Assembly: GCA_013368315.1 (NCBI GenBank)
Contig: JAACJM010000042.1
Location: 1-64,000 of the forward strand
Reading direction: 5' to 3'
DNA length: 64,000 nt
Source of the DNA: Tetrapyrgos nigripes
Lineage: Eukaryota; Basidiomycota; Agaricomycetes; Agaricales; Campanellaceae
The notes below the pieces were generated by a model. It did not search any database, was not told where the DNA came from, and was given only the letters and a program-made list of their open reading frames with translations. Position 1 is the stretch's first letter, and each line of letters starts with the position of its first letter. A program made the position numbers and the translations under genes. Positions 3,625 through 50,900 of this stretch are shown here, one piece after another.

Positions 3625-5646
3625 TTAATTTTCGGGGGTGCCGTCATCGATGAACTGATCGGATCCCCCAGCATCCGAGTCTTCTCTGCCCTCTTCAGCG
3701 TCCCCTTCTGATTCCGTATCGTAGTATATACGCCTGCGTTCCTTACATAAGAGCGCAAAATCCTTCCCAGGTAGACTGGCCAGAGCTTCAAACCTCGCCA
3801 TCAAAGGAAGCTCATCCCCAAAGTCTTTAAACGCTGTCTTCAGTCTAAAGAACTCCAGCTCGGACGAGATGGAATCCTCGTCTCCTCCGTCGACCTTCTC
3901 GCCCCTCTGAGAATTACTACTGGAACTCGACCGTCCGGAAGAGGAAGATATCCGATTCCCAGTGGAAATAGTACGCGTACGCGTATCGAGCATATCGCAT
4001 ATGAGCCGCAGGAAATCATTGGTAATGGTAAGGACGGGGTTTTGAAAGGATAAGAGATGAGTTAGGTGGTCGAGTCCGACAGCTGTAATACGTATGAGAC
4101 ATGAACAAAGATATGGTACGAAAGACAATTGACCCGACTCACTCGTTGAAGAAAGATTTTGAAGTACTTGAGCAGGATCCAAATGACGACCACCCCGGTA
4201 TGTTGCTTCAATTGTGAAACTCGTGAGTTTTGGTGTCAAGCGAAGGACTTCAAGCATCTCGGAAGTGGATATTGATATCCTGAGGAATAATGATTGGAGA
4301 GAGCACAAAGACTGTGATATCATGGTCGCGAACGCCGTTTGGGACCATTTTGGCTTAACCGACACGAAATCGTTGTACTCCTCGTTGTTATACGAAAGCG
4401 AGAGCGAAACCAATTTTGGGAGATTGAGGATCGAGAGGATGTGGGTTTCAAACTCGGCAGGGGTGTCTAGTGGAACACCCACGCAGATATCCAGACGAGT
4501 AAGATTCTCCAGCCGAGTTGGCGTTACCACACCTCCCTGCGTCCCAACCATCGACCCTTTATACCTCAGTATGTGCAAATCAGCCAGAACTGGAAAGTGT
4601 TCCAAAACAGAGAGTGTATCATCGAAAAGAACGTCCAACGTAACCGAGCTCAATCAAGTCAAGTCAAATAACTTTCCCTGCCCTACATCCTGCCATCCAG
4701 CACTGATGCCATCCAAACTAGGAATAACCAGCCTACGAAGAGGAGCAGAGTTAAACATACTCCCAATATGGAAAGTCCAGGGACGCATCTCTTCACTGTC
4801 TGGATCTACCGCAATGGTCAGGTTTTCCAAAAGTGGAAAACACGTCTCGGATACCCAACCCCATTCCGCGAGATGCATAAGCATCGAGGGATCGAGGGAG
4901 AGGGTTGCAGATTTCCATCTACAACAATACTCGATGAGGAGCTCGATGAGTTCCTGCAGGTCCATATGAATATCGGCCAGTGGACCTGGGGTATGTGGTG
5001 GAAGAGGTCCCCAAAGGAAGGCTCTAAGACGCAATGGGCAAGGCATCGAGCGTGTTAGCCACGTCCTCAAAACATTCTCGATTCGATATGCTGACGTGTC
5101 GTAAAGACAGTCAAACCGAATGGTGATGTCAGACCACAAATCCGGTTGTCCACAAGCCACGTCTCTCCAAAAGGAGCAGGTACCAGCGATGTTGAGGACC
5201 GGCACAGACATGAAAGTAGTCCGCTTGGATTCTCTACGCGGTAATGAGAAGATACTTGTCACGTCGTCGATTTCGTCTGAGTTGTCGGGCTGAGAACACG
5301 ATAACGAGAAAATTGTAGCCAAAAGCTCGACAGGAAGTTTGCGTATTGGAGCAAGCAAAGCCTGTCGAAGTTCTTTCGACTTCATTGCGAGGTCTCTTTC
5401 CTTTTCCAGCGCAGCGAGGGTACCCCGAAGCCGAGCGATTTCCTGGTCGTATAGTTCTATGTCTATTTCAGTTTCTGCTATGCTTTGAGCGACAAAGGGG
5501 ATGTCGTTCTCGGAAAGTGTACCCTTTTGACGATGATTGAGAAGGAAAGTGTCAGAGGGTGGACCTGAGCATCTTGGAAGTCGAAAACGGCAATGGGTGC
5601 ATAGCAAAATATTTTCGCTGGCGTCAGTACCAGTGGAAGCCGACAT
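3625..5646 (-). pseudogene. F-box/LRR-like protein interrupted by one in-frame TGA
   Basis: Starting at ATG 5646 (the in-frame TTG upstream is not needed), the product begins with a CxxC-containing N-terminus (LCTHCRFRLP), a coiled coil (ETEIDIELYDQEIARLRGTL) and an F-box core, PIRKLPVELLATIFSLSC. Leucine-rich C-terminal repeats and an acidic tail ending DQFIDDGTPEN follow. This is the usual layout of agaricomycete F-box proteins, which act as substrate adaptors of SCF ubiquitin ligases. The frame is continuous over about 675 codons except for TGA at 4654-4656, inside an LRR strand (FDLT-stop-LSSVTL) where a CGA-to-TGA transition would explain it. I tested nearby GT..AG pairs and none removes the stop while keeping frame. 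It may be a pseudogene, an allele, a read-through case or a sequencing error. Confidence 0.75.
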
Positions 5647-5905
5647 GTGCAAGACACTGGAAGCTCTGGTTAGTCATCCACGTCAGAGAATGCCAAGTGC
5701 TTTGTATACCGAAACTAAGCGTACGTTGAGCAGCGAGCTGACGTTGAGTTTGCCAGAATGGTTTCCGCTAGCAGATAAAGATTTATTTTGCACATGCTAA
5801 AGGCAACAGCGTCTAAAACAAACAACAGGAAACAAGAAACTGGCTACTAGTACTACTTTAACTAAGTACATACACGAAAACGCTGGCTATGTCTCTTCCA
5901 AAAAC

Positions 5906-29042: not shown

Positions 29043-29787
29043 TTATTGCCTTCAGAGGGTCAAGGGTAAGACAACGTCAGTCCCACGTTCCTCGAAACCA
29101 AAAACCAAGACGAAGAAGAAAGGAGCCAAGAAATGACTTGAGTACGACAACTTACAACAAGCTCAACGTCAAATCACCCTTCACCGAAGCCTTCAACTCC
29201 ACCTCTACATCCAAGTTAATATCCAACCTCAACTTCAACGGTGCATCGTTCTTATTCCCTCCTCCTCCTCCTGCTCCACGCTGCACTCCTCTCTTCCCTG
29301 GTGCATCCATATCCCCAACTCCCGCGTTTCTAGCTAGTTGTCCTCCATGGTGATCGCGTTCCAGGCTACCGTTAGACGAGTTGTCGTAGTCGTCATCGGC
29401 GTATCCATCGTCGTATCCGTCACTGTCGTACCCGCCATACCCATCGTCCCGATTCCCATTCCAAGACTCCGAGGTACTCCCGTCCCGAATAGCACCTCTT
29501 CTTCTCACTCTAGCCCCTGCGGTGCGGTGTTGACCGCGTCTGGGTTGGATGATGTAGTCCTCATCTGCGTCGTCGCGATCTTCGTGGTTGTGGTTGTGAT
29601 TGTGGTAGTTGGAACGATCACCGTGACCGCCCATGGGGCTAGGACTCGCTTCATAGCGAGGTTTATCATCCTCGGCCTCGGGTTGGTTGCGGTGGGCGGG
29701 AGGTGGAGAGTTGGATGGAGAGGAAACGTCGTCTGGGCGGGTGTCTTGGGCAGAACCTGGGCGTTTGGTGTCGGAGTAGTCGGACAT
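29043..29787 (-). CDS. Disordered protein A with C-terminal alternating beta motif
   Basis: Exons 29787-29156 and 29049-29043 (minus strand) flank a 106-nt intron, giving 212 residues; without splicing, 211. Residues 1-180 are low-complexity and highly charged: NHNHNHEDRDDADED, an Arg-rich patch (GARVRRRGAIRDG), and Asp/Tyr/Gly runs (GYDSDGYDDGYADDDYD). The C-terminal segment reads LKLRLDINLD, VEVELKASVK, GDLTLSLL, with hydrophobic residues at alternate positions, i.e. an amphipathic beta pattern. The donor GTAAGT overlaps the TAA that would end the unspliced frame. Splicing to GCAATAA replaces it with Gln and a new stop. The same motif and intron phase recur at 30393-30966 and 33995-34820. 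Function is unknown; the motif may drive homotypic or heterotypic assembly (inference). Confidence 0.75.
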
Positions 29788-30392
29788 GAGAAAGTTAGTT
29801 CGTTAAGCTGTCGTATGAGAGAGTCGTTACTAAGTTTGGGTTTAGAGAGTGCGAAGAGTTGTTAGTGTTGGATGTGGATAGTGTTATTACTTTGGGGATC
29901 CAAAATACGGGTTTAAAGAATTTATACAAACAAACGCCATAGATGATGGAATCACACAGAATAACATGAGTCGTCGTGGGGCATAGGTGGCTACACTTGG
30001 CTACAATGAATATGAATATACGACAATGACGTCGACTGAGCTCATTGCGCGAAGAGATCCACAACCATTGAAGCTTGAAGTACTGAAGGACATCGTCGTG
30101 CCAGTATTCTGAACAGTCTGTCTCTGAAATCAAACCAGGCTTTGGTCATAAAATGATACATTAAGAGGAGATACAAGGCGTTACTAGTGTTGCTATTAAT
30201 ACATGATAAGGAAAAGGTAGTCCGCAGTATTCAGTATGGACAGTACATCACTAGGAGGTAAGGATTGTAAAGTACTGATTGATAGTGAAGTGCACAACCT
30301 GTGAATGGTATCAGTCCTGGAATATCCGTAGGGAAGAGCGCCAAAACTCACAGCGTAAATTCTGAGTTTTGCTTCCAGTGCGACTGAGAGAT
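29788..30392. other. Intergenic interval
   Basis: Promoter side of protein A and 3' side of protein B, both on the minus strand. No further gene seen. Confidence 0.5.
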
Positions 30393-30966
30393 TTATCGAC
30401 TATTAAGGGGAAAAAGTCAGAAAAAGTGTTCTCGTCGAGACGAGGAAAGACAACACTCACAGTAAAGACAACGTCAAGTCACCATGCACCCTCGCCTTCA
30501 ACTCGACCGCAACATCCAAATTCAAATCCAACCTCAACTTCAACGGCTTGTCTCCACTATCTCCTTCATCATCGCCTCCTCCCTGAACCTGCTTACCACC
30601 ACCCGTCAAACCCCCAACAGCATTCCCAACACTATCAACAGCACCTTTACCTGTATTGGCTACTTGACCAACTTGATTCCCTACATCGTCGATTTCGCCG
30701 ATTCCAGGGAGACCGCCGCCCTGTCCTTGGCCTTGACCTCGTCTCTGTCCACGACGCCTGGGTTGTGGACCACGAGCAGGTGCAGCGTCCGAGTCATCTG
30801 CGCTCGACACACTGGCACTGCGTGGGTTTCTGCTGCGTGCGCGAGTACGGGAACGAGAGGCTTGACGGGAGCCTGGTTTGGAGCTTTGTTGTTCTTGTTG
30901 GGCTGGAGGAGGCCCGGAAGAAGGAGAGCGGGAGTTGGATTGGCTTCCAGGTCCTTTGGTATCCAT
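30393..30966 (-). CDS. Disordered protein B with C-terminal alternating beta motif
   Basis: Exons 30966-30461 and 30399-30393 (minus strand), 61-nt intron, 170 residues (169 unspliced). The start is ATG 30966 (MDTKGPGSQSNSRSPSSG). An Arg-rich middle (SRSRTRARSRNPRSASVSS, then RRRGQRRGQGQGQGGG) leads to LPGIGEIDDVGNQVG and a Gly/Val-rich linker. The C-terminus reads LKLRLDLNLD, VAVELKARVH, GDLTLSLL and is nearly identical to proteins A and C. The donor GTGAGT overlaps the unspliced stop TGA. Splicing to TCGATAA gives Arg and a stop. The branch site CTGAC sits 16 nt before the acceptor. It is transcribed away from the LEA-like gene at 32033, so the two may share a promoter region. No known function. 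Confidence 0.75.
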
Positions 30967-32032
30967 AATAGCTTTCCGTTACTCGTGTAATTAAGAGGGG
31001 GGGAAAGTCGTAAACGGTGGGTGGTTTGATAGCAAGGTAGAAAGAAGGGTCACCGGATAGATTAATCTTGAATAAATGGTTTACAGCCCAAGTTGGGTTA
31101 AGTATAGTGTTTTGGGGATGGGGCTGTTTTGCGTAGTCGATGACGCGCAAGTGGATTGCGATGAGTTCATCGCGACAGGTCCATTATTCCACAAGTTTAT
31201 TTCGGTTTTTCTCGCCCCATTGGGCAGTATTGATGAGATGCAGTTTGGATGCAGTACTAGTCTTTGCTGCTAGGATCCTACCATGCTTGGAACTTGCAGA
31301 TGGTAAACTTGCGTTTTTGAAGTAAGTCAGCTGCATACAAGAGAAGTTGAGCGAAGAGAGAAGTATAGAGAAGAGAAGAGAAAGACAGCGGCGGCAAATT
31401 GCGGCAAGTTTAGTACTACACGTCGTGAGCATGACGTCATGTTGATCTTTTGCGCTTCCCGGTCGCCAACGCAAGCTTTTCTCAAGTCTCTCCTACGGTC
31501 CAGACTACCAAAGACTGCAAAAGACTGCAAAAGACATCTGAATACCTTGGAACTATGGCTGGGCGTACGGATTGAGAGAAAAAAATGCAAACTGCGGATG
31601 GAGCTTTGCTTGGCGGTATCCAGTCCTTGTGGAATATCGATAATCCAGGCACAGTTTCAACACACTTCTGCCCCTATCCCTTTGGGCAATCTTTGGTAAG
31701 GCTCCGTGTCCTTCAGGTGCCTTTATCCTAACATAGCAGAACCTGAGCTGAACCCGTCACCAAGTTGTCTCCAACATCATACTCAACATCATGATGATAT
31801 CACTTTCCAGTCACTTTGGCGCCTTCCAATCTTCCAGGCTCCAATTTCTCCAATTCTCATGAACAAACCTTGAACAGTGACGGGTCTTTATTCTTGTATA
31901 GACTCTTTCAATTCCATTCTATGTGGCGCCACCCACTACGCAAAACCTACGCAAAATACTCCCAATGACCTAACTATGCCGCACGCCGTGCCATGCTTGC
32001 CTTCCTTAAGACCCTGATTCTGTTTTTGATCT
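30967..32032. other. Divergent intergenic region between protein B and the LEA-like gene
   Basis: About 1.07 kb between divergent starts; no convincing gene. It presumably holds both promoters. Confidence 0.45.
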
Positions 32033-33361
32033 ATGCCAGATTTCTTAAACACCAGGGTGAACTCTTCCACCTTCTATCTACGACAGAATCAGAGTAATCG
32101 ATCACTCGAACAACCACCACAACAACAACACCAAGCCCAACAACCCCCATCCCCACCACCCCAACGCCAACACCAACAACCACACTCAGGCTCAGACTCA
32201 GACTCAAACTCAGACGAAATGACCGACTACCAGCGCCAACGCCCCCAACCCCCTCCCCCTCCTCGTGCCTCAGGCTCTCAATCCAACGTCTTGGGTGACA
32301 TCCTTCCTACTGGACAAATATCTCCTTCCGAAGCTGGAGATGAAGACACGGGAGGAGTTCGACGAGGGCTTGGTAATGTTACTTCTGGACTTGGTCTCGG
32401 CGGCGGCGGAGGAGCAGGAAACAAAGCCCCCTCCCAATCGAGTATCTCAGCAGAGGAAGGCGGACGTACGGACGAAGAGAAGAAGGAAGACGCAGAACTC
32501 GCAAACCGGCTTTCTGCGTTGATTGAGGATGCAAATGAAAGGGTGGTGCCGTTGTGTAAGATGATTAGGAAGGTGAGTTGACTGTGTCGTTTGTTCGTAT
32601 CCTAGACCGCGAGAATGGCGAAGCTGACATTAACATCTCGTTCCTATGTAGCACATCGAAAACATGGAAGCCCGCAAAGAAGAAGACCGAGACGAACGCG
32701 AACTCGTCGAGGCCGTCAGACCCCTTCTCATCCAAGCTGAGAAAATCTTGAACGAGACTCTGGGTTCTGTCAAAGGCGCTGATCCAGAGAACCGTTTGAC
32801 CAATCGGGCGAAGAGACATAGGGATGCGCATACGGCAACTCCGGAGGAGCAGAGGTTGGCGGAGGCTTTGAAAGTTGTGAGTATCGTCTGTCTATCTTTC
32901 TTAATGAGGTGGAATTGACGGACGTCGTCCTCACTGTTTAGCTGACGGAAGAAGTCGGCGGTACCATCGAATGGGCCCGAGGCAAGCTTGATAGTTTCCC
33001 GAAAGCCAAGAGGGAATTGGGACCTTTGCTTGATGCGCTTGCACGTGTGTACCTTCTTTCCCTCCCTTTCTCCTCCTCTACGTGATATCTGACTTTTTTT
33101 ATGTTCGATGCATGTAGAACCCCTCACGCAGATCATCGCTGGAGTAGGCATGCTCCTGGCTGGAGTCCTAAACCTTCTCGGTAAGCTTCTTAGCGGGCTT
33201 GGGTTGGATAGCTTGTTGAAGGGTCTTGTGGCCGCTGCGGTGGGTATCGTCTCGTCCTTTCTGTGAGACGTTTAAGAGAGGAAAACTGATGTGTTTGTGT
33301 GATTTTACAGGGCTTGGATAAAATCTATGCTGGGTTGGGTCTTGGGAAGCTTTTCGGATGA
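32033..33361 (+). CDS. LEA-like protein resembling fungal DUF6987 family
   Basis: Five exons (32033-32572, 32652-32876, 32942-33044, 33118-33239, 33311-33361), all junctions in frame, 346 residues. The N-terminus is Gln/Pro/Ser-rich (PPQQQHQAQQPPSPPPQ). From about residue 150 it follows the fungal LEA-like pattern I recall as DUF6987. First come helical segments (ANRLSALIEDANERVVPLCK, ERELVEAVRPLLIQAEKILN, PEEQRLAEALKVLTEEVGGT). A hydrophobic, glycine-punctuated end follows (QPLTQIIAGVGMLLAGVLNL, then LGLGKLFG). Such proteins are thought to act in desiccation or stress tolerance or membrane association; this is family-level inference. It sits between motif proteins B and C, which suggests a shared process, though it lacks their C-terminal motif. 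Confidence 0.8.
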
Positions 33362-33994
33362 GTGATGAATGGTGCGGATATGCCAGTGTATGGACGACGT
33401 GCTGGCAGAACTGGAGTTCTTTTTTAATTCCTTGTTTTTGATGAGAAACGAATGGACAATGGACATGAGGAAGATGTAAAAATATAGCTACATAGTGAAC
33501 AAACATTGTTATGTATACGTACAGTACCTTCATATGAATACTTACTCAACTTGTGTTAAAGTCAAGTCGAATCCTGTCTAAAGTGTCTTCTACTTTCAGG
33601 GCAGTCAGTAAGAAGGGGATGGCTTTGAGAAGGCTTAGACCATATGTCCAAAAATGACTGCATCTCCATTCGGAGTCCTGACTTTTCCTGTACCTGACGA
33701 CGGTTATGACCTCGATGATGCATCAGAGTGCATCAATTTCTCTCATCCCATCCCTACTTTTGGTTAGGATATGATCTCATATGTGGAGCCACATATCATA
33801 ACTCCAACATTACCCTCATAAGCCCTACCCTTGCCTTTGCGTCACGACTTTAGTCTTCCCAAGTCTTTCCCATCCCTACCCAAAACCGTCGTACCGTCAT
33901 CTGAGTAACAAAACTCAGGCTGGTCCCTCCACGTTTAAGTCGTTCTCGACCAGAAACAGAAAGGCCCGCATCCTCCGAAGCAACCACTCCCAAT
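33362..33994. other. Intergenic interval
   Basis: 3' side of the LEA-like gene and promoter of protein C. No gene recognised. Confidence 0.5.
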
Positions 33995-34820
33995 ATGTCG
34001 TCTCCTCCACCCGCTGCGAACAACAACGCTTCAAAGAGACGTAGAGGACGAAGTCGGACTACACGCAGTCTCTCGGCTTCTGCTACGGGCGGAAGTGGAG
34101 ATGAGCTCTCTGATTCCCCGGCTCCTCCTGAGCAACAGCAGCAACCATCGACGCCAGGAGCGGGGACAGGGACGAAAAGAAACCGTCGTCGACCAGGGAA
34201 GAAGAACAAAGGAGAGTTGCCAGGTGTGAACGAGTCTCAGGACGCAGAAGCTGAGGCCGAGGGTGGTGGTGGTCTCCCTGGCGTCGACGACTGGCCTCAC
34301 GGGGACAACCCCGGCAAACCCATAGGCCCTCTCCCTGGCGTCGACGACTGGCCTCATGGCGACAACCCCGGCAACCCCATAGGCCCTCTCCCCGGTGTAG
34401 ACGAGTGGCCTCACGGTGATAACCCAGGGAAGATGGAGTCTCCTCACGGCGTAGATGATTGGCCCCATGGCGATAACCCAGGCAAGCTACAGCCTCCGCA
34501 TGGTGTCAACGATTGGCCTTGGTCCAAGACCGATCTGAGTAATCTTCCCGGAGTGCATGATTGGCCTTGGGGAGATTCTGTCGGAGACGAGATGATGAAG
34601 AGTATGCCGACGTTTGGAGTGGATAATTGGCCTCATAAGAGTGACGCGGATGATCAGGACCATGTTATCAAGTTGAGGTTGGACTTGAATATTGATGTTG
34701 CGGTGGAGTTGAAGGCGAGGGTGCATGGTGACATTGAGTTGGCGCTTTTGTGAGTATTGTCCATTTTTTTGGTTTGGTTTTTTGAGATCGGTGCTGACTG
34801 GGTTGCTTTACAGGATGTAA
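33995..34820 (+). CDS. Repeat protein C with C-terminal alternating beta motif
   Basis: Exons 33995-34749 and 34814-34820, 64-nt intron, 253 residues (252 unspliced). The start is ATG 33995 (MSSPPPAANNNASKRRRGR). A basic, disordered N-terminus (GTKRNRRRPGKKNKGE) is followed by seven imperfect tandem units. The first four are GVDDWPHGDNPG-like and spaced by LP or PH; the last three are shorter and diverged (GVNDWPW, GVHDWPW, GVDNWPH). The C-terminus reads IKLRLDLNID, VAVELKARVH, GDIELALL. The donor GTGAGT overlaps the unspliced TGA; splicing to GATGTAA gives Met and a stop. The branch site TGCTGACTG lies 15 nt from the acceptor. The Trp-Pro repeats are unlike anything I can name. Function is unknown. 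Confidence 0.8.
34273..34650 (+). repeat. Seven imperfect tandem repeats encoding GVDDWPHGDNPG-type units
   Basis: Units of about 48-66 nt within gene C. The first two differ by few bases (GGCGTCGACGACTGGCCTCA in both), implying recent duplication or homogenisation; the later ones are diverged. Confidence 0.85.
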
Positions 34821-35292: not shown

Positions 35293-38200
35293 ATGTCTCA
35301 CAACGACCTATTCAAGAAAGAAATCGACAGACTCAAGAAGGAAAGAGACGCGGATTTCGAAGAACTATGCAACGTAAAGAGAGAACTGGCGGAAGAAAGA
35401 GCACGCTTTGCTGAAGAAAAAACGCGCCTTGCTCGGGAGTTGATTGAAGAAAGGGTTCAGAATGATATTCTTAAGCGGCAGATGAAGGACTGGAAGGCTG
35501 CGTCGGAGTTGGAGGCACGTCCTAGTCAAGAACTTGAAGAAGATGAAAAGGTGAGCTTAAAACTCTATTAAGGTCGATCCTTTCCCAAGAAAGTGACCGA
35601 AGCGCCCATACAGCTCCGGTACCCTCCCGTTTCTGTGAATGAGCAGTTTCGTGTAGGAGAAGTGGTGCGCTAAGACCAACTACTAGATTGACGCGTAGCT
35701 GAAGGCATTGCGTGCGCAGGTTACGATGGGAAACTCTGCGGGAGAAATCCAGGTATGTGGTTACTCAAATTGGCTATTCTTCTGGACCGAAGCCTGATAA
35801 TCTTCGTTAGACTCTAAAGCGCTCTCACTCCGAGTCTCCAAGGACATCATTATCCGCCTTCGCTACACCAGACTCAGACTCAAACTACACGTCTCATGAG
35901 AACCCTTCCAAACGACGCAAGATCGTCTCCGAGTCTGGCTCTCAATGTTCCACTCAATCCACTCCGGAACCGAACCTACCTGACCTACCTAGGCCTGAAG
36001 CGCCTGCACCTAAACCTACACGTCTTCCCAGCATATACAGGGATACCCCTTTTTACGAGGTATGTACGCGTCTTTGACTTTGTGTTACACCAGAGTTATA
36101 CCAGAATACTCATATTATGTCTTTCTCTTTCTGACTGACTGACTACAACAGCGTCCTGGATACGTTCCAACTCGTCTTCCGACGCCTCGTACGCAGAGCC
36201 CGATCCCGAGCCCTTTTGATGAACCACGCATGCGCATGGATACTGGAAGTGTGGGAGGAGTAAATGAGCAGGAATATCCCGAGTCTGTTGAGCTGAGTCT
36301 TCTTCCAACGCCAGTCAGCATGTGGGGATCGTGGCCTGCAGACGACGTCGGCATTGGGCTGCAGGCGGACATGTCCAACGGGTTGGCAGAGCCGTCAACA
36401 TCCGAGTTTAAAGTATGTTTCTCTTTAAAACTCTGGAGCTTTTTCGTCTCACTCCCTTATCTTTTTCGCCTTTCTTGCCTGACGCATTACATTTATCCCT
36501 AGTCTCTGGCATTCCAGCCTGAGATACCCGCTGCTTCAACATGGACAGACATTCAAGCTTGCTCTTCGGCGTCGTTTGATCAGGTTGGCAGTCGAGTCAG
36601 CAAAATCAATCAATTACAATCTGCGCCGAGTGAAGTACGTCTGGTGTCCTAATATTCTACAAATCCTTCATATTGACGTGGAGTTTTGCAGGTAACAGAA
36701 ACGCAGCCCGTCCCGCCCGAGGCATCCACGTCGGTCACACATCTCCGTTTGAGTCAAGTTCAGCGTATGGTATCTCTTATCGAAGCGGAAGTCCAAGTTA
36801 CCCAACCATGGCCATATGCATCTGAGGATAGCTCAAGTGTAAGCCCCTGCCCCCTTCATCCTCACCTCACTTTTGCTTTCTTCATTTTCATGATTAGTGA
36901 CATTCCATTCCGCATATTTACAGACTCCCGCACCCGAGCCTCAGCTTGGACCGTCTTCAGGGGTTCTCACTCGAAGTAGAGCTTCTCGTACAGCAAGTAA
37001 ACAAGCCAGAGGTGCCACTTCCATTAAAGAGGCCAGCGCCAGCGCCAGTGCCAGTGCCAGTACCGGCACACGCAAATCGACGTTGACGCCAAAGCCTAAG
37101 ACCCGGGCGCGAGCTGGTGCTCAGGCCCCAAAGAAGGGTAGTGGTTCCCGGACCACAGAGGCTCAGGCACGGACTGTGAGTTACTCGCCTTGTCCCTGCA
37201 TTCTTCCCCGATAAGACCTCCTATTCTGACAGTAATCGTTATTTCCGAGTCAGGTTTCTCCTCCACCCGATGATTCACAGAACGTCTGGAAGACCGCTGT
37301 CCAGGAGATATACAAGACTATCCCTAGTGTCATCGTTGGCAACTCTGCGTTCGACACCGATTTTCATGTCTCGAGAAACTGGATGTGGATCCAGTACGGG
37401 GCTAATGAGAACACACTGGTCGCCGAGATTCCGGCATCTAAAAACCCTCACTCCCCTTCTGCCCTTCCTTCTGATCGATACATCCTCTTCCCCAACCACG
37501 AACCTAATCCCAATCTACCTCTAGGTCCAGGGGAGCCAGGGATCATTTTGACAAAGAGGGACGACTTTCTGGGCCATAGTGCGATTTCGATTTTCGTGAA
37601 ATATTCTATACTGGTTGCCAGTGGGAAGAGTCGTAGGGTTGTTTGGAGGTATATGGGGGAGTATAAGCCGAAGTTGCTAAGGTTGATGAGTGCTGAGGAG
37701 TTTGCGTGTCTTCCTAAGAAGGTCAGTTGGTCATTACTCTCCTACTATTCTCAGCGTTTATTCTTTGTCGTTTTCTTTTCATCACCAGACACAAACCTCC
37801 TGGGCAAAAGCTATCGCCTCGTCCAATTGGTCCTGTTTTGTCAGTATCCTCGTCAGGGTCCACGCACGAAGATACTCCAGACATCCTTCGTCTTCGTCTT
37901 CTTCGACTGACTCAGCGGAGATTGCTGATGAGGATCTGGATCTCGAAAAGTCAAGAAAGCGTGTCACCGCGCATACCTGTAAGGACAGAAAGGCAGATCT
38001 CTACAAGACGGTCGGTCTGAGATTGCAGGACATCATTGATGATTTTAGGAGTGGAAAAGAGGTTGGTGCTTATCTTTCTTCACGAATCACGAAGTATCTT
38101 ATACTGAGTTTTTACAATTATAGGCCCTCGACATTGTCATCTTGGAATGTAAAGAGTACGACGAATATTTTGCGAGAGATCTGAAGGACAAATGGGAGGG

Positions 38201-38857: not shown

Positions 38858-40190
38858 ATGTCCGAATCGATGTCTGGACAACAACCTCTGGTTTGGCTTA
38901 TCACAGGTACGTCGAAACCTTAGCACATAAATGTCTAATGTACTCAACCAAAATTACAAAATAATTCTCTCTTCGTACATGCACATACACGTCATACAGG
39001 TACATCTTCAGGATTCGGCAAACGCTTCGTCATCTCTGCTCTTCGTCGAGGGGATTTCGTCATTGCGACTTCTCGTACTATGCAGAGCATTGAGAATCTT
39101 CCTAGTCAAATTCAAGACCACTTGAAGCTGCCACTGGGACGTCCAAATGATACTGAATTGGACGGCGTTGACCTTGACTCTTCCCTTTCAGCCCGTCTGA
39201 ATCTTATGGAACTCGATGTGAATTGGGACACAGAAGCTATACATGCAGCTGTTAAAAAAGCGCTGTCGATTCACGGTCGGGTTGATGTTCTGGTTAATAA
39301 CGCGGGTTATGCGTATAAGAATCTTGTTGAAGATGTTGGGTGAGTAGGTTACTCCTTCCGTCAGGAAGAAGCACTGTATCCGGTAGACCGAGTCATTGAC
39401 AGTCCATTATTTACAGGTCAAACGAATTTAAGACTCAATTCCAGACAAACTTTTTCGGTTTGATAGATGTCACCAATGCTGTCTTGCCCCAGATGCGACA
39501 GAGACGATCTGGGACCATCATTATGATGGGGAGTAGGAGTAGTTGGACTGCGGAGCTAGCGGTTAGTCAAATTTCAACTTCTAACTTTCATTGGAACAGA
39601 TTTTGACCCACAATGTTACTGTTACTGTATGAAGGGAACGGCGCTATACGCCGCTTCTAAGGCTGCAGTAAGAGGTACGAGAGATTAGCTACTCTCAGAT
39701 GCGGTCTCTGCGTGTTTCAAACTTCAATTTTGCTTTTTGTCCAGTTTACACGGAAACCCTAGCAACAGAGCTTGCTCCCTTTTCCATCCGATGCCTTATT
39801 ATCGAGCCAGGAGCATTTCGTACAGAAGGCATCCATTCCGTCCGACCATATACCCCTCCTCAATTCTCCCAACCAAACGGTGTAAACTCTGACCCCAGAC
39901 CAGAATACGCACCCGTTCGAGAACGAATAGACCAATTCTACAAAAATATCGACGGAAAACAAAAAGGCGATCCTGTTAAAGCGGTTGAGTTGATTGTGGA
40001 TGTGGTAAGAGGGGAGGGAAAAGCGAAGCAGGCGATGATGGCCCGGGAGGAAGAAGGCTTAGGCTTAGGCTGGCCTTTGTATTTGATTCTGGGAAAAGAT
40101 GCGCAAGATGGGGTGAGGGAGAAATGTCAGAAAATGTTGGACGTGGTGGAGGAATGGGAGGATTTGATTGGGTCGTTGGAGTTTGATTGA
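38858..40190 (+). CDS. Short-chain dehydrogenase/reductase (classical SDR)
   Basis: Starts at ATG 38858 (MSESMSGQQPLVWLITG) and ends at TGA 40188-40190, with five or so exons. The first intron splits the cofactor motif TGTSSGFG. NNAG is present (VDVLVNNAGYAYKNLVEDVG). The catalytic Ser lies in IIMMGSRSSWTA and the Tyr/Lys pair in GTALYAASKAAV. FRTEGIHSV follows. It is an NAD(P)-dependent oxidoreductase, probably cytosolic, about 300 residues long. Similar fungal SDRs reduce or oxidise small carbonyl or alcohol substrates; the substrate is unknown. It is intact in all catalytic positions. Confidence 0.88.
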
Positions 40191-42503: not shown

Positions 42504-45500
42504 TCAAGCTTTCAGTAAAGCAGACAATGACGATGCTTGCCTCTTCATGAGACCACGACTCATGCGAGATCCTGGCCAGCCTACGTAAATACCACCAGCT
42601 TCTGCAATCTCTCCAGAGGTAAGGAGGGTGTGTTCACAGAGCATAGAGCCATCTTCCATGGAAGCACCAGAGAGAAGTCGAGAACCAGTCCTCATCGCGC
42701 AACTGATAAGAAAAAGCCAAGGTCAAATCAAACCCACGGTAAATCGCAAAAAGAAATACAACGTACCCATTACCAATCTTCAATGGGTTCAGAGCGAATT
42801 TGCCGCGAGAGTTGATGTGAGCGACTACAGAGCAGTCGTCAATATTCACATCGTCACCGAGCTGCCAGAAGGAAAAGAAGCAAGGAAGATACTTCGTCAG
42901 CAAAAGGAATCGATAAGCAACTGACGACGACTCACCTCAACGAGATCAGGCTCAGTCATCAAGCCTGGCTTCCCACTAGGGTAGATAGCACAGTTCTTGC
43001 CGATTTTGGCTCCCAATAAGCGGACGTACAACACCATCCATGCAGTACCAGTCAAAGGAGCCATGACACTCCCACCATGCCCATGGCGTGCCAACTGAGA
43101 GAGTGTAAGATGTAACTGCCAGCGCTGGCAGTAGTTACTGTTGTCCCACTCGTACTTCCCAGGTTTTCTTCTTCCAATCACTATCCACTTCGTCACAATA
43201 ACCCAGAGGATGGCCAATACAGATTGCAGGTTGCTGAAGACGAGATAACATGCGAGGATAGAGCCAAAGACGATCCCGAATAATTCATTGCGTTCACGGT
43301 AGACGAAGTCGAGATTGCGATGGACGAGATTCATTAGTTGGGCAGCTGCGATGGGAGTAGCGGACCAGTAGGCTGCGGTGAAACAGGCCATGAAGATATT
43401 GGTGAGCAAAATGAGCGGGTAGGGCGTGACGAAGTAGGAAGCTTGACGTTTGTAGAAAGCGCGTCCGAAAGGAGTGATGGTGTCGTCGTTAGAGGATTCC
43501 TTGTCGGCACCTCCTTTACTGAGACAGATAGCTTCTCCTCCGGCTGTAGAAGGAAGCATTGACCTCGTCAGCAGAGTGATTGGAGGAAATAATCAGGGAC
43601 TCACAGTTTCCAATCCAGGTGGAGCCAGGTTCGTAGTTTGCGCCTCTGCGTCCGAGTGCACCAGAGCCCATGACAGTACGACTACCTACCCTGGTGTTAG
43701 GGAGGAGGACGACACGGTCGGCGATCATAGCTGTCAAAGCGAATAAACAGTGAGTATGGTCTGTATGGAGTATGAAGAGCTGACTGACCTCCTTTGCCAA
43801 TAGTAATCCTTCCTGTACCGTATCCATCAGTCGTGAATAACTCTGAACGTGATCCAAAGACAGCATCGTCTCCAATGTCGAGAAGCTCTGGGTCCAAGCA
43901 GTAAAGACCGGAACCAGGCCAGTAGATGCGTTTACCAATTCTGGCGCCCATAAGACGATAGACGATCTGACTCGTTGGTTAGCTCGTATATACTGCGTTA
44001 GAAAGAGAAGATACATACGGAGACAACTTCGTAGTGGTTCCCCACTATCGAGAATGCCTTCTTCATCTTGGGCTGAGACAACAATGTACCGTTGATGAAA
44101 CGTCTGAGTAAGGCAAGCTGGGAAGCCTCAGAGGCCGTGCACTCCTTGTTCAAACCAAATAGCCTCTTGACGATTACGCCGAGCACAACTTGGAGAACGG
44201 GTACCAGCGTATTCCGAGTCATACGGGAGAGGACATGGAAGAATACTCGTTTAGGAGCAGAGAACCAGAAAATGATCGAAACCATGGGAGGAACACCAGG
44301 TTGAACGAGTTCTGTGGTCTCGAACATGCCCCAGAGACAGAGGAACCAAGGAATATAGGCGATGACCGTGACGATAAGGAAGATAGGATAGGCAACGAAG
44401 ACTTTGAGAAGCCAGTGAGGTTGCCTTATGAACGACCGGTTATATTGGGCGTACTCAGGGGGAGAAGGCTGTTCAAGAGACGATGCATGAGGACCGTATA
44501 CAATCCCGCTAGGAAGAGTTGCTCCTGGAGAGATTTGGGTGTAGGTGTTGACGACTGCGTCGCGTCCAATGACGATGTTACCAAGACGGAAGTAGCCATT
44601 AGGCTCGACGCAGAAACCTCTGACGAGGGCGGAGTCGAGTCTGCAACCATCCTCAATGGTAATGAGGTCAAGCTCTCCCAGTCTAGTCTTGGGGTCAATG
44701 ACGACATTTTTACCAATTCGGGCACCAAGTAGTCGATAGTAGAGCCTCTCCAACGAAGGATGTAGTCGGAAGATGCCTTTTCCGCCAGCACTGATGATGC
44801 GATTAAGAAACAACGTCAGGGACAGTGAACAAAATATACATACATTAGAGCCTGGTTGACCATCCACCAGCGCAGATAGTAGGTAGACCACCTGGAACGA
44901 AAGGAGTCAAAAAAAAAGTTTTGAAAGACGTTGATAACCTACATGGGGTATCTTCCGGGAACATATCTTCCAATGATCACCCACTTCGTAATGATCCCCA
45001 AGATCGGAGCTGCTATTCGGACGATGAGCCGTGAAATAACAATTGAGCATAGAAGCGCTCCAATACGCTCCCAGAAGCTGGCTGAGATGTAGATGGATAG
45101 TCGCGAAAGCGTATACAAAAGGATGGTCCCTGATTATTTGCTCAGTAATTCACGCTTTACAGACATAGGATGAGGATGAAGAACTCACAGGTCAAAGCCG
45201 ACTTCAAAGGATTGAAGAAAAGAGTGGGAATGCTCTGGATAATAATGACTAGTGGATGTGTCTGACTGCGATGAGGACGAGGAGCTGATGCAAGAGTTTC
45301 GATATCGTCGCCACGAAGTGTATCGTCGTCAGATACCATAGTTCCGATGGTAGAAGGAGCACCGGACTTTGGCCCTTGCTGTGATTGTACGAGACTGGCG
45401 ATACCCTCGATGGTGCTGTTCGTGAAGATGGAAGGAACAGGGATGGTAGCGCCCGTTTTTTTGCGAATATGGTATGATAGTCGGCCAAGGAGAAGCGAGT

Positions 45501-47982
45501 TCCCACCAAGAAGGAAAAAGTCGGATTGAGAGGTGATTTTGAGCGCCTCGATACCTAAAAGCTCGGCTACGATGTCACGAATGACCAGAGCAGTGTCCGA
45601 CATTGCGCTGCTGTTCATGCGACTAACCTCTTCCTCCAAGGCAGCAAAGTCATAATTCCCTTCGGAGTCCCTGAAGAGAGGACCTTCTATGACGTGGACG
45701 TCGGGAAGAGAGTAGCCGGGGAGTGAACTGGAGAGTGAAGTGATGAAGAAGGAGGGCTCGACTTCAACGCCAGGTTTTGTAGAGACGAAGGCTTCGATAG
45801 TACCATCCTGTCGAGAACATACAGCAGCATCGGCGACACCTAGAAGAGATGATAGCGCAAGCTCGATATTGTTAAGGTTGACAGACACAGGCTGGCAAGT
45901 GATAGGCTCAGAGAGGTTCCCAGGATTTGGACCGAGGGTTGCTTCAAAATGACGTGAAAGAACCGGGACTGAGTCCGTCATCTGCCCCAGATCCAAACGA
46001 TTGGCAAGCTTGATTCGCAGAGGTTTACCCGCGCTGAAAGACAGTCAGATTCCAGGGATACCGGGACAGCGATAAGACAAACCTGTTCTTCGGCACATCG
46101 GACATGTACACGAGTAAGAAAGGCCATTTCGAAGGATGCAGATAGTCGCGAAGCAAATCCGTCAACTGATTGAGGCCAATTTTAGGTCGATCAGGCTGAG
46201 GCACAATAATCACTCCGATGGCTTCTTGCAAAACATCATGGTCAACTGCAAATGCCAAGGCAATCTTGGAATGCATAACCAACTTTAGCCAACCATGTCG
46301 GACTTCCGCAGACTTCACATACCTTCACAAACTCTTTAGCACCGGAGATAATCGCTTCCTCCACTTCGAAAGGGGAGATGACCTCGCCACCTTTGTTGAT
46401 GATTTCCTTGGAACGTCCGGTGATAAACAGATATCCATCATCGTCCATATAGCCCATGTCCCCAGAGTCGAACCATCCTTCGCTAGTGAATGCCGAAGTA
46501 TCGAGAGGGACGCTTGGATCAGAAGAAATTTCGTAACCTTCAAAGGTAGGGATACCCCGAACGGAGACAGCGCCCGTCTTGCCGCGCGGTAATTCTCGCT
46601 CCAAATTGGACGGGTCACGGATAGATAGATGAGGACCGCAGGCGATGCCCGAGCACCCTGGTCTCTCTAGTCGGTACGTAGTCGGAGGTGAGGCAATGGG
46701 CATACATCTGACGGGCAAACAATGAGTAACCACAGAAATCTCTTACAAATGACAAAGAATCAAATGAATAGGAAATAAACTATTAAACTCACTCCGTCAT
46801 TCCATAGGAAGGTAATACAATAGCGCCTTGAAAACGTTCGCGAATGTCCAGTGCTAAAGATGGAAGTAGTCCACCTGCGGCGTTACAGATCATACGGAGG
46901 CGCATATCCCGTGCAGGGTCAATGTCATCAGGCTGGGATGTAAGAATGGCATGGTGAATAGTAGGTGCAGCGTAATACCTGCCAATAGAATCGCTATCAG
47001 CTCGGATGCGGACTTGGACAAGCAGATAAGCGCTTACCAAGTGGCCTTCAACCTCGAAGCAACTGTCCAGAAAGCGATAGCATCAAAACCCGCACACATG
47101 ATAGCGGAGCCGCCAGACATCATTGGAGCGAGGAGGTTCCGTACGATACCGCCAACATGAAACAGAGGCATCATATTCACTTATGGAAGTGCAAATCAGT
47201 ACGCACGTTTTTAAAAAGAGAGGATTGGACTACTTACTGTTGATGTCCGTAGGTTGCAAATCCCAAGAATGAACAACAGCCATAGTACCGACGATGAGAG
47301 ACCGTAATGAGTAGGGAACAACCTTCTTCTTTCCACTGGTTCCCGAGGTGTGCAAAACGAGGGATTTGTCGCCGAGGGTATGAAGAGGTGTGGTAGCAGC
47401 GTTGTCCACTAAGACGAAGTCTGATGTCGCGTCTACCTCCTCACCCATGACACTCATATCAAAGAGACCTGCGGGGCCATTGGTCCTCCCATCAACGAAT
47501 ATAACGTCGCAATCCAATTCCATTTGAAGTTGACGTAATTCGAGGCGGTCCTCGACATCCTTGGTTGTGATCACGGCTTTGGCATTGAGACGGACGGCGT
47601 CCTCGCGAAGTTCGGCAGCTGTGCAGGAAGCATTTAGGGGAGCGCAAGTATGGTAGGCAGCGATGGAGAGTAGGGCAAGGGCGTTTTCGGGGCCCGTAGG
47701 AAGGATCAACATGATGCGGTCATTCGGCTGTAGCGGTCGAGAAGCTCGAGAAGCGGAACGCGGAAGAGAGAACTGGGAGATAAAGGAATGGATAGCCTCA
47801 TGAGTCAGAGGTGGCCTGGTTGAGTCGGGGGAATAAAGAGCAGGCGAAGACGTAGTACAAAGACAGTCAAGGAGGGTAGAAACGCGTCCAGAACGCGTAA
47901 TATGGCTGGATAAAAGGTCACCCAGCGAAAGATGAGATGCTTGAGATAAGTCATCCCTCAAAAAAGAGAGTGGGATCGACAT
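42504..47982 (-). CDS. NRPS-like enzyme: adenylation, thiolation and membrane/hexapeptide terminal domain (Pls-like)
   Basis: Starts at ATG 47982 (MSIPLSFLRDD; the frame above begins only with TTG). More than ten exons encode roughly 1,500-1,600 residues. The adenylation domain has LVLHTSGTSGKKKVVPYS, MNMMPLFHVGGIVRN, LPSYGMTE and GWFDSGDMGYMDDDGYL with TGRSKEIINKGGE. The thiolation domain carries DFFLLGGNSLLLGRL (phosphopantetheine Ser). No condensation or thioesterase domain follows. Instead several membrane segments (FVAYPIFLIVTVIAYIPWFL, LILLTNIFMACFTAAYWSA) alternate with left-handed beta-helix hexapeptide stretches (RIGKNVVIDP, RITIGKGAMIADRVVLL, KIGKNCAIYP). This order matches epsilon-poly-lysine synthetases and the NRPS terminal domain (TIGR02353). 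An amino-acid homopolymer or amide product is inferred; the substrate is unread. Confidence 0.85.
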
Positions 47983-50900
47983 AGTCGAGGTCAAGGGCAG
48001 GAAGTGCCAAAACACTGGCAAAAGAGCGACTGGGGTGAGGGTAGATATAAGAGTCTGAGAGAACCTTGGAAAAACTTCTTCGTCTATTAGTATAGAAATA
48101 CATACTCAAATAAGCGGTCGTCGCTCCAATCATTACCCTTCTCACGTACTTACGCGAGATCTCGTAAGATCTTCTATCTTCTTGGTTAGCATACGAAGTT
48201 GAATCGCAAAAGTTACAGCGATCTCACACCACAATAACCTGGAACTTCCCATGTCGCCTTCAAAGACTATAGTAGACTGTTCAAGAGCGAAAAGTCAGCA
48301 TAAAGTCTCTCATGTAGCTTCAGCACTGTTGTCCGTAACTCACTGTAAGTATAGCCTCGGGGATACATATTACTCCAACGCCATGCACTAATTCAAATTG
48401 TAGTATGTCTTGGCACTGAATCGAAGTTGTATGTGAGATCCACACCTATCTACACTCTCATGTAGTAAAACTACCAGTGTACGTCCATCCGACCGAGGAA
48501 GTAAGCCACAGGTAGGGTTAACCACTCAAAAACTCACTCTTCGTAAAACATTCATTCCAATAAATCACCACATTGACGGAGATATCCCTTTCCGGCCGGT
48601 ATCGGACGCATCTCTGATCGCTTAAAACAAACCGGCTAATACCTCGGTGGATAGTCTCCGGCCTGATGTTGGCGGCTAATAAGCAGTAGGTTAGACGGAA
48701 GCTAGACTAAGCTAAAGCACTGCGCCAGGCGCCACTACATCACATACCATCTAGTTTTTGTCTGGGCTCAAACATGTCAGGCTTGCCCGGCGAGTATTCA
48801 TCTACTTTAGAAGCTGTTAGAGAATCTAAATGGGAAGAACACAGTAGGTTACCCATGGAATTACACCGTAGCCCAGGTAGGCGCTCAGCTCTCAGCTCTT
48901 AGCGATACACGCGATGAAGGGAAAAGATTATCGCCAGTGGAGAAAGACGTGCGAGTGCGATGATTGCTTTTCCATCTGATCGCCTATGAGGACCAGCTCG
49001 GTGAAGATGGAGCCAGTACTCATTGGCACGTTGATACCAAAGGAACCTTCAACGAATTGAGCCGAACTAGCAGTTGTGTGAAAGCAAGGGAATACATACA
49101 TATGAACGCGGAAAGCCATCTCTATGCGACTACAATTCCGTCTGGTCGTGCTCATTGTGTTTCATTGTTCAACTTGATCTGACGGGGACATAAGCGTTCA
49201 GATATGAGAAAATGACAAGAAAAGAGCTTTTCACAGATCAGCATGCAACTGTCAAGCAACTATTGAGAATTTTACATGGAGAGCAACCTGAGAGATGTCC
49301 TAGTTCGGTAGGCGTTGTGTGCGTAGATGGCGGGTCCGGAGTAAGTCGCGGAAATTCTCACGATGCCGTTTTACATCGCCACTGCAGCTGGAGTGGCGCC
49401 GGTCTCGACACCATACCGCGAGCCCAAAATTTTCCTCCATACGGGACAGTGGAAAGTAGTATGACGGGCTGAATGTCGTTTAGGGCCGTATATACCGTAT
49501 TCACTCCAGGACGTCATATATGCATCCCGAAACTGCAGGAGTGACTCGTGAGTCGGACGGCCCCCGATTGTCGATGACTCAAAAAGATGGTGTTGATACA
49601 GTTAAAGGCTTGAAGCTAGTCAAATGGCCTCTGCGATACGTAGCTGTAACGACAAACCTCTCGATACTGGATTGACCTGATCTCCGTACCCACATACAAA
49701 CGGTATGGTTCACGACCTAACATTGTGGCTACTTCGGACGTGGGCCAGCCTACTTCGATTGACAATCTGTCAACTTAAACAAACCCAAAAGTCGAGAGGT
49801 CTGGAATAAAACGCAGTTTTTCCAGAAAAGTCTCGGAGGGCACAGAATACCACGTCTGGTTCATGCATTGATGTACGGGAGCAACAAATAGGTCCCGATG
49901 TACGTCGTGGCTCCCAGAGTTCTTGGCCTGGGGAAATTCAACAGTGATAATGATTGCGGCTCCAAAACAGTCAATCGGTCCGCGCTGGTTATACATTCTT
50001 AAGAAGAAGAAAGCCTTCTCCGCTTCTTGCAGAGCTTTCAAGATCCTTGGCTCTGTGGCTTGGCAACTCTATCGAATCAGAATTCTTTGAATGGGTTAGA
50101 AATGCAAGTTCGCCTTTGAATTCAGTCACTATCCGTCGGAAAACAGATTACCGCAGGCTTCCACCCGCAATATCTGTACATACAAGAATTCTTTGCAGGC
50201 TTCCTGACTCTGTGGTCAAGCTTTTTTGTTTTGAAGATTCTTTACAAAAATGTCTAATCATCGCTGTAAGCTCATACTCTAATTCTCATCTACCGCTCCG
50301 TGCTCAGGACCTCAGGGCTGTCCATTTTATTTCTCTACGCCCCCATTGCTTGCTCTCTGCGCATCCACATGGCTTCATAGTACCAGTTTCCGTGACTACA
50401 GTCTCCGCGACTCCTAACTGCTTCATTTCTCCCCTATACGTTCTCGATCTCTTAATTTACTGTGTAGTCCTCTTACTTGTTATATTGTTTTACTACTCGA
50501 CAGGTTTTATAACGTATTTCATATTGCATACTAATACTCATTCCAGCCCGGGAAACTCATTTCCATCTATGCTTTCCCCTCACAACTATACTCATGAGCC
50601 CCTCGGGTACGTATTCTATCATTCTTTCCATTTCTCATCCTTTACTCACGAGTTTCGTGGTCTTGATAGTTGCTCTGCGTTACCCACCCACCGCTCCCTC
50701 ACTTTGATTTTTAGTTACATATATATATGCGTCTGCCGAATCTCGTTACCCAGGAGAGTCGCCGTTTCAGGGCTCCCTATTAATTTCCTCGCGAGAATTT
50801 TCCCGAACGACTCTGCAAGATGATTAGAAGAAGAAAAAATTTGTACATTCAACGCTGCTGCGGGAAAGTGCTTGATTTCATAATACGCCGCATCTTAAGT

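What the first reader, a model, noticed from the sequence alone, without database searches (positions are those of the whole stretch)
29043..34820. Cluster of three disordered proteins sharing one C-terminal amphipathic-beta motif, interleaved with a LEA-like gene
Seen: three proteins unrelated in their N-terminal parts (His/Asp/Tyr-rich; Arg/Gly-rich; Trp-Pro repeat) all end in nearly the same roughly 28 residues: LKLRLDLNLD, VAVELKARVH, GDLTLSLL. Hydrophobic residues occupy alternate positions for about 15 residues, then a Gly-Asp turn, then a second alternating strand. Each protein also has an Arg-rich patch upstream. Family knowledge: fungal signalling amyloids (HET-s and related motifs) are short terminal beta motifs shared by neighbouring, otherwise different proteins. 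Inference: this segment is an assembly or recognition module that lets the three proteins co-assemble, possibly with or on the LEA-like protein's target, in stress or dormancy. I cannot tie the motif to a characterised function.
Basis: partly seen in the sequence, partly recalled or inferred. Interest (0 to 1): 0.88.

Follow-up and report, generated by a model that had tools for sequence, protein, structure and literature searches.

The report
Fungal beta-tail proteins near DUF6987 genes
A mushroom genome has a small, uncharacterised family of floppy proteins that end in one nearly invariant strand-like tail; the five copies found all lie close to genes of one other uncharacterised family, which suggests that the two kinds of protein may work together.

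Summary
The observation largely holds. ORFs 29152-29787(-), 30457-30966(-) and 33995-34753(+) end in nearly the same 28 residues with strict hydrophobic alternation. But the N-terminal parts are not all unrelated: p2-p3 and p1-p2 align above shuffles, p1-p3 does not. This looks like one paralogous family.

New result: in the window's own 98-Mb genome, three tail queries each found the same five copies. All five lie 0.6-2.4 kb from one of the four DUF6987 (PF22485) genes above Pfam's cut-off, in three clusters, each with one head-to-head tail/DUF6987 pair. All five tail genes have a predicted intron at one position in the last Leu codon. DUF6987 copies are old duplicates (dS 1.56 or more), partly block duplicates, so the linkages are not independent.

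The amyloid-motif reading failed the tests I could run, and 'LEA-like' was not supported. I favour the tail as a docking strand for the neighbouring DUF6987 protein, inferred, about 0.35. Linkage in other species could not be tested.

The parts
29043..29787 (-). p1, tail gene 1 (His/Asp/Tyr-rich body); exon 1 29787-29156, predicted intron 29155-29050, last exon 29049-29043 (spliced end LLQ-stop)
   Evidence: intron predicted from GTAAGT donor, CTGAC and AG acceptor, not from transcripts; other acceptors are possible
29155..29238 (-). p1 28-residue beta tail
30393..30966 (-). p2, tail gene 2 (Arg/Gly-rich body); exon 1 30966-30461, predicted intron 30460-30400, last exon 30399-30393 (spliced end LLR-stop)
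   Evidence: relatives P0005 and P0007 also end LLR
30460..30543 (-). p2 28-residue beta tail
30967..32218 (.). divergent intergenic region between p2 and the DUF6987 gene; holds one palindromic TGACGTCA, also present in 1 of the other 2 divergent regions
   Evidence: weak, no control made for this word
32219..33361 (+). DUF6987 (PF22485) gene, 284 aa; exons 32219-32572, 32652-32876, 32942-33044, 33118-33239, 33311-33361; most hydrophobic 19 residues start at residue 230
   Evidence: 288.3 bits, profile positions 3-200 of 200; introns predicted
33995..34820 (+). p3, tail gene 3, body with 7 copies of V[DNH][DEN]WP; exon 1 33995-34749, predicted intron 34750-34813, last exon 34814-34820 (spliced end LLM-stop)
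   Evidence: close relative P0001 of Dendrothele bispora
34667..34750 (+). p3 28-residue beta tail
38990..40184 (+). neighbouring gene (looks like a short-chain dehydrogenase, by eye) that is the best other match of a gene beside the C33b tail/DUF6987 pair; evidence of block duplication, not thought part of the mechanism
   Evidence: one direction searched genome-wide

Best explanation
p1-p3 belong to an agaric protein family made of a fast-evolving disordered body (Arg/Ser-rich patch, Gly/Pro-rich middle) and a near-invariant C-terminal amphipathic strand. The tail genes live in an old neighbourhood with DUF6987 genes, with one head-to-head tail/DUF6987 pair in each cluster. Most likely mechanism: the tail is unstructured alone and folds as a beta strand or hairpin when it docks on the DUF6987 protein, whose conserved C-terminal hydrophobic segment may anchor it to a membrane. 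The disordered bodies are thereby gathered on one scaffold, where the Arg/Ser patch could be controlled by phosphorylation. Shown: family, tail constraint, shared predicted intron position, gene linkage in one genome. Inferred: docking, membrane anchoring, phosphorylation.
For: Five tail copies in 98.46 Mb and four DUF6987 genes over the cut-off; all five tail genes are 0.6-2.4 kb from one, in three clusters. One random gene falls that near with chance about 2.5e-4 (a simple estimate made after seeing the pattern). Each cluster has a divergent tail/DUF6987 pair. Tails keep 19-28 of 28 identities between pairs while 0.27-0.79 of synonymous sites differ. DUF6987 cores are 74-87% identical at dS 1.56 or more, with a 19-residue hydropathy peak of 1.94-1.96 in 4 of 4. 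Self-pairing of the tail's charges is no better than shuffles in 7 of 7 tails, which leaves room for a different partner. AlphaFold gave no regular structure for tail or whole protein alone.
Against: No binding evidence of any kind. C42 and C33b also share a third gene, so the linkage may be inherited block duplication and the clusters are not independent. Numbers are unequal (5 tails, 4 DUF6987), and p1 and p3 are not in divergent pairs. Divergent promoter regions share no more words than random stretches. In Dendrothele the four tail proteins are recorded with four different longest-contig lengths, so clustering there is not shown. AlphaFold confidence was low with shallow alignments (14 and 5 rows), so absence of fold means little.
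Confidence: 0.35

Rival explanations
1. Homotypic assembly: tails of p1, p2 and p3 stack on each other as a beta sheet or fibril, so the three proteins co-assemble.
For: Strict alternation over 20 residues and near-identity of the tails; disordered bodies. It resembles designed alternating peptides such as KLD-12 (recalled; the literature search failed).
Against: The best charge pairing over all registers is matched or beaten by 3880 to 4997 of 5000 shuffles in 7 of 7 tails, so the polar face is not self-complementary; low Gly/Asn/Gln; AlphaFold monomer gave no hairpin (multimers not tested).
Confidence: 0.22
2. The linkage is only history: an ancestral neighbourhood was duplicated, and tail and DUF6987 proteins have separate jobs.
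For: C33b's short-chain-dehydrogenase-like neighbour has its best other match in the window; divergent promoter regions share no more words than random stretches.
Against: DUF6987 dS is 1.56 or more, yet the tail/DUF6987 neighbourhood is kept in all three clusters, and outside them only weak matches were found: C38 and C60 below the DUF6987 cut-off and one E 0.18 tail match in a repeat.
Confidence: 0.28
3. The tail binds a lipid surface (droplet, ER or plasma membrane) as an amphipathic strand and targets the disordered body there, without a protein partner.
For: Amphipathic strand at the C-terminus; DUF6987 has a hydrophobic segment that could serve the same membrane.
Against: 18 of 31 tail columns, several polar, are invariant in the six variants aligned, more than lipid binding would seem to need; nothing tested directly.
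Confidence: 0.12

Closest known systems
Uncharacterised proteins of Dendrothele bispora and Lentinula (P0001, P0002, P0004, P0005, P0007, P0009, P0010)
   Same: Same tail at 77-90% identity over 58-65% of the 48-residue query and a similar overall layout; P0001 is a close relative of p3.
   Different: Named only hypothetical or uncharacterised in the sources; no partner gene visible to these tools.
Fungal amyloid signalling motifs (HET-s, sigma, PP) - recalled
   Same: Short terminal beta motif shared by several proteins of one neighbourhood.
   Different: No listed NLR match nearby, no N-terminal copy found, low Gly/Asn/Gln, no Pfam match at E<=1.
Designed ionic alternating peptides (KLD-12, RADA16) - recalled
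   Same: Alternation of hydrophobic and charged residues.
   Different: Charges are in blocks and pair with themselves no better than shuffles; followed by a Gly-Asp turn and a second short strand.
Septal-pore disordered proteins of ascomycetes (SPA/SPP; PMC10023807: outline, section 11 and found passages read)
   Same: Disordered regions biased to arginine.
   Different: No sequence relation tested; those are ascomycete proteins and no shared tail is mentioned in the parts read.

Membership tests
DUF6987 (PF22485) | Score above Pfam's curated cut-off (26 bits) | tested here: met
   Window gene 288.3 bits over positions 3-200; C33a-minus 293 bits; the other two over the cut-off by exons.
LEA proteins | Match to a Pfam LEA family | tested here: not met
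   At E<=1 two of the four spliced DUF6987 proteins were scanned and matched only DUF6987, FUSC and CENPH, the latter two below cut-off.
Fungal amyloid signalling motifs (HET-s type) | Profile match to a described motif | tested here: not met
   0 Pfam families at E<=1 for p1-p3, for q1 and q2, and for 4 of the 11 homologues, P0001, P0004, P0005, P0008. That Pfam holds such motifs is recalled.
Fungal amyloid signalling motifs (HET-s type) | Same motif at the N-terminus of an NLR, gene nearby | tested here: not met
   5 tail copies found, all C-terminal. None of 90 listed NACHT matches lies in C42:1-64000 or on C33; the only one on C42 is at 295 kb (90 of 231 candidates scored).
Fungal amyloid signalling motifs (HET-s type) | Forms infectious or templating amyloid | not testable with these tools
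   Needs purified peptide.
Beta-tail family defined here | 28-residue C-terminal tail and intron inside the last Leu codon | tested here: met
   Tail in 5 of 5 genome copies; intron predicted at the same position in 5 of 5, without transcripts. Of 11 database relatives 2 end LLR, 7 end LL and 2 have longer predicted ends.
Beta-tail family defined here | Neighbouring DUF6987 gene in other species | not testable with these tools
   No fungal genome other than the window's own could be searched; viral and prokaryote collections gave no confirmed tail match, viral contigs no DUF6987 match.

The most novel reading that the evidence does not exclude
A fungal two-component assembly system: membrane-associated DUF6987 scaffolds, each paired with head-to-head genes for disordered client proteins that carry one universal C-terminal beta-strand plug, so that diverse client bodies can be swapped onto one scaffold.
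Probability: 0.25. Interest if true: 0.72.

Novelty: new variant of a known kind. Interest (0 to 1): 0.5.

Why it matters
DUF6987 appears in one paper of the library searched, as an entry in a table of fungal biofilm proteins (passage read), and the string LKLRLDLNLD in none. The genomic pairing gives DUF6987 a first candidate partner and a simple test. If true it would be a new way for fungi to gather disordered proteins at one site.

Tried and rejected
Amyloid signalling motif: rejected as membership. Self-complementary charge pairing: tested, no better than shuffles. Viral or bacterial origin: in viral contigs 67 stretches matched a tail pattern and in genome contigs 120, none confirmed; DUF6987 in viral contigs 20, none confirmed. 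PDB relatives: best E 1.4 for p2 and 0.18 for a DUF6987 protein, both taken as chance. Bodies without tails: a q2 N-terminal query found only itself, not even the other four bodies, so this says little. Further tail variants: a query of made-up variants found the same five plus one weak match (19.6 bits, E 0.18), taken as chance because the place is an Arg/Asp-type repeat. Shared promoter words: 8-mers 9 against a control mean of 6.9 (32 of 200 controls as many), none of 10-12 bases (controls drawn from the window only). AlphaFold: mean pLDDT 51.8 and 66.0, DSSP gave nothing; inconclusive. Fold search was not run on these models because of low confidence.

Literature: paper searches that worked were made; six later ones failed, so absence from print is claimed only for the terms.

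Full report
What is there. The window is fungal DNA. p1 (29152-29787, minus), p2 (30457-30966, minus) and p3 (33995-34753, plus) are open from ATG to the tail. The tails are alike and strictly alternating. The two further genome copies are called q1 and q2 here. All five carry a donor (GTAAGT, GTGAGT three times, GTGCGT) at the same phase-2 position inside the last Leu codon. With the acceptors I chose, the last exon holds one residue and the stop: LLQ, LLR, LLM, LLR, LLR for p1, p2, p3, q1, q2. These introns are predictions; other acceptors are possible for p1-p3 and q2 (which printed only early stops). In four of five the donor itself makes an in-frame stop if the intron is kept, so spliced and unspliced RNA would give almost the same protein; q1 would gain a few residues. 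Two database relatives (P0005, P0007) end LLR, in agreement; seven end LL; two (P0001, P0009) have longer predicted ends.

One family. Outside the tail, p2-p3 and p1-p2 align above all shuffles, while p1-p3 does not; p1 exceeds the shuffles with none of 11 relatives, p2 and p3 each with 10 of 11. One protein search worked: 11 proteins at E<=0.01 among 13 candidates, from Dendrothele bispora (4), Lentinula (3) and four records without a name. Their alignment with p1-p3 suggests a common layout: Arg/Ser patch, RRR patch, GGGLPG, acidic or Gly-rich linker, tail. The bodies fall on the disordered side of a charge-hydropathy line and the tails on the folded side, in 5 of 5.

Genome-wide. The window is contig C42:1-64000 of a 98.46-Mb, 587-contig genome. 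Three tail queries each returned the same five places: three in the window, C33:343564-343674(+) and C33:381707-381823(-). PF22485 gave 15 matches by exon, 12 over the cut-off. With gene models they make four genes: C42:32219-33361(+), C33:342498-341613(-), C33:344718-345566(+) and C33:383159-384103(+), called D42, D33a-minus, D33a-plus and D33b. Below the cut-off were one exon of these genes and two other places, on C38 and C60. A whole-protein query found the same four genes plus the weak C38 match. Distances from tail gene to nearest DUF6987 gene run from 0.6 to 2.4 kb. The pairs p2/D42, q1/D33a-minus and q2/D33b are divergent; p1 lies behind p2, and p3 follows the window's DUF6987 gene on the same strand. 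The searches score only the best candidates and ignore introns, so more distant members could be missed.

How independent is the linkage? 351 open frames of the C33 region (49.6 kb of C33:338500-388400; 299 bases before 378500 were not returned) were matched against the window. Besides tails and DUF6987, antisense frames included, only a short-chain-dehydrogenase-like gene and an F-box-like family matched. The dehydrogenase-like gene's best matches outside itself are in the window (searched in one direction). So C42 and C33b are probably parts of one duplicated block. Synonymous divergence of the DUF6987 copies is 1.56 or higher, one pair beyond estimate, so the neighbourhood has lasted long. 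The three window tails differ less from each other (0.27-0.43 of synonymous sites) than from the C33 tails (0.52-0.75, 28 codons only), which fits later tandem duplication in C42. I therefore count the linkage as one ancestral event kept in three clusters, not five independent events.

Mechanism. A 20-residue amphipathic strand with ten hydrophobic side chains needs a partner surface. Self-pairing of its charges is poor. The gene family constantly near it has a conserved hydrophobic segment. I commit to docking on DUF6987 at 0.35, with historical linkage (0.28), homotypic assembly (0.22) and lipid binding (0.12) as rivals. AlphaFold of p2 with 14 sequences (pLDDT 51.8) and of the tail with 5 (66.0) gave no secondary structure by DSSP; this neither supports nor excludes a hairpin.

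Known or new. No Pfam family matched the tail proteins scanned. The string LKLRLDLNLD occurs in no paper of the library, and DUF6987 in one, as a table entry among fungal biofilm proteins (one passage seen). LDLNLE with 'fungi' gave one rice paper, listing only seen. I read the outline, section 11 and passages of PMC10023807 on septal proteins; it shows that disordered, Arg-biased regions matter at septal pores of an ascomycete, which is a lead for localisation, not evidence here. One search was otherwise seen as a listing only.

Verdict. A real, conserved, uncharacterised family with an unexpectedly tight gene neighbourhood; the amyloid reading is unsupported; function open but now testable.

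Noticed in passing
window 44001-48105, minus: AMP-binding, phosphopantetheine and weak hexapeptide (below cut-off) matches in neighbouring frames: perhaps an NRPS-like or reductase-type gene.
   Followed up: no
G000, whole genome: NACHT domains are abundant: 90 matches at E<=0.001 with 231 candidates, many with long open frames and several per contig, for example C177, C11, C40.
   Followed up: no
window 33995-34753: p3 carries 7 V[DNH][DEN]WP repeats; P0001 of Dendrothele has similar repeats.
   Followed up: partly
window 29155, 30460, 34750; C33 381707: In 4 of 5 tail genes the predicted splice donor doubles as an in-frame stop, so intron retention would change only the last residue.
   Followed up: partly
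window 30967-32218 and C33:382166-383158: A palindromic TGACGTCA lies in 2 of the 3 divergent tail/DUF6987 intergenic regions.
   Followed up: partly
window 35293-37907: A coiled-coil-like frame followed by a DUF6697 match, downstream of p3; no match to it among the C33 frames compared.
   Followed up: no
window 3628-5673 and C33:351050-361750: F-box-like genes (Pfam match below cut-off) in both regions, 25-41% identical; probably a large family.
   Followed up: no
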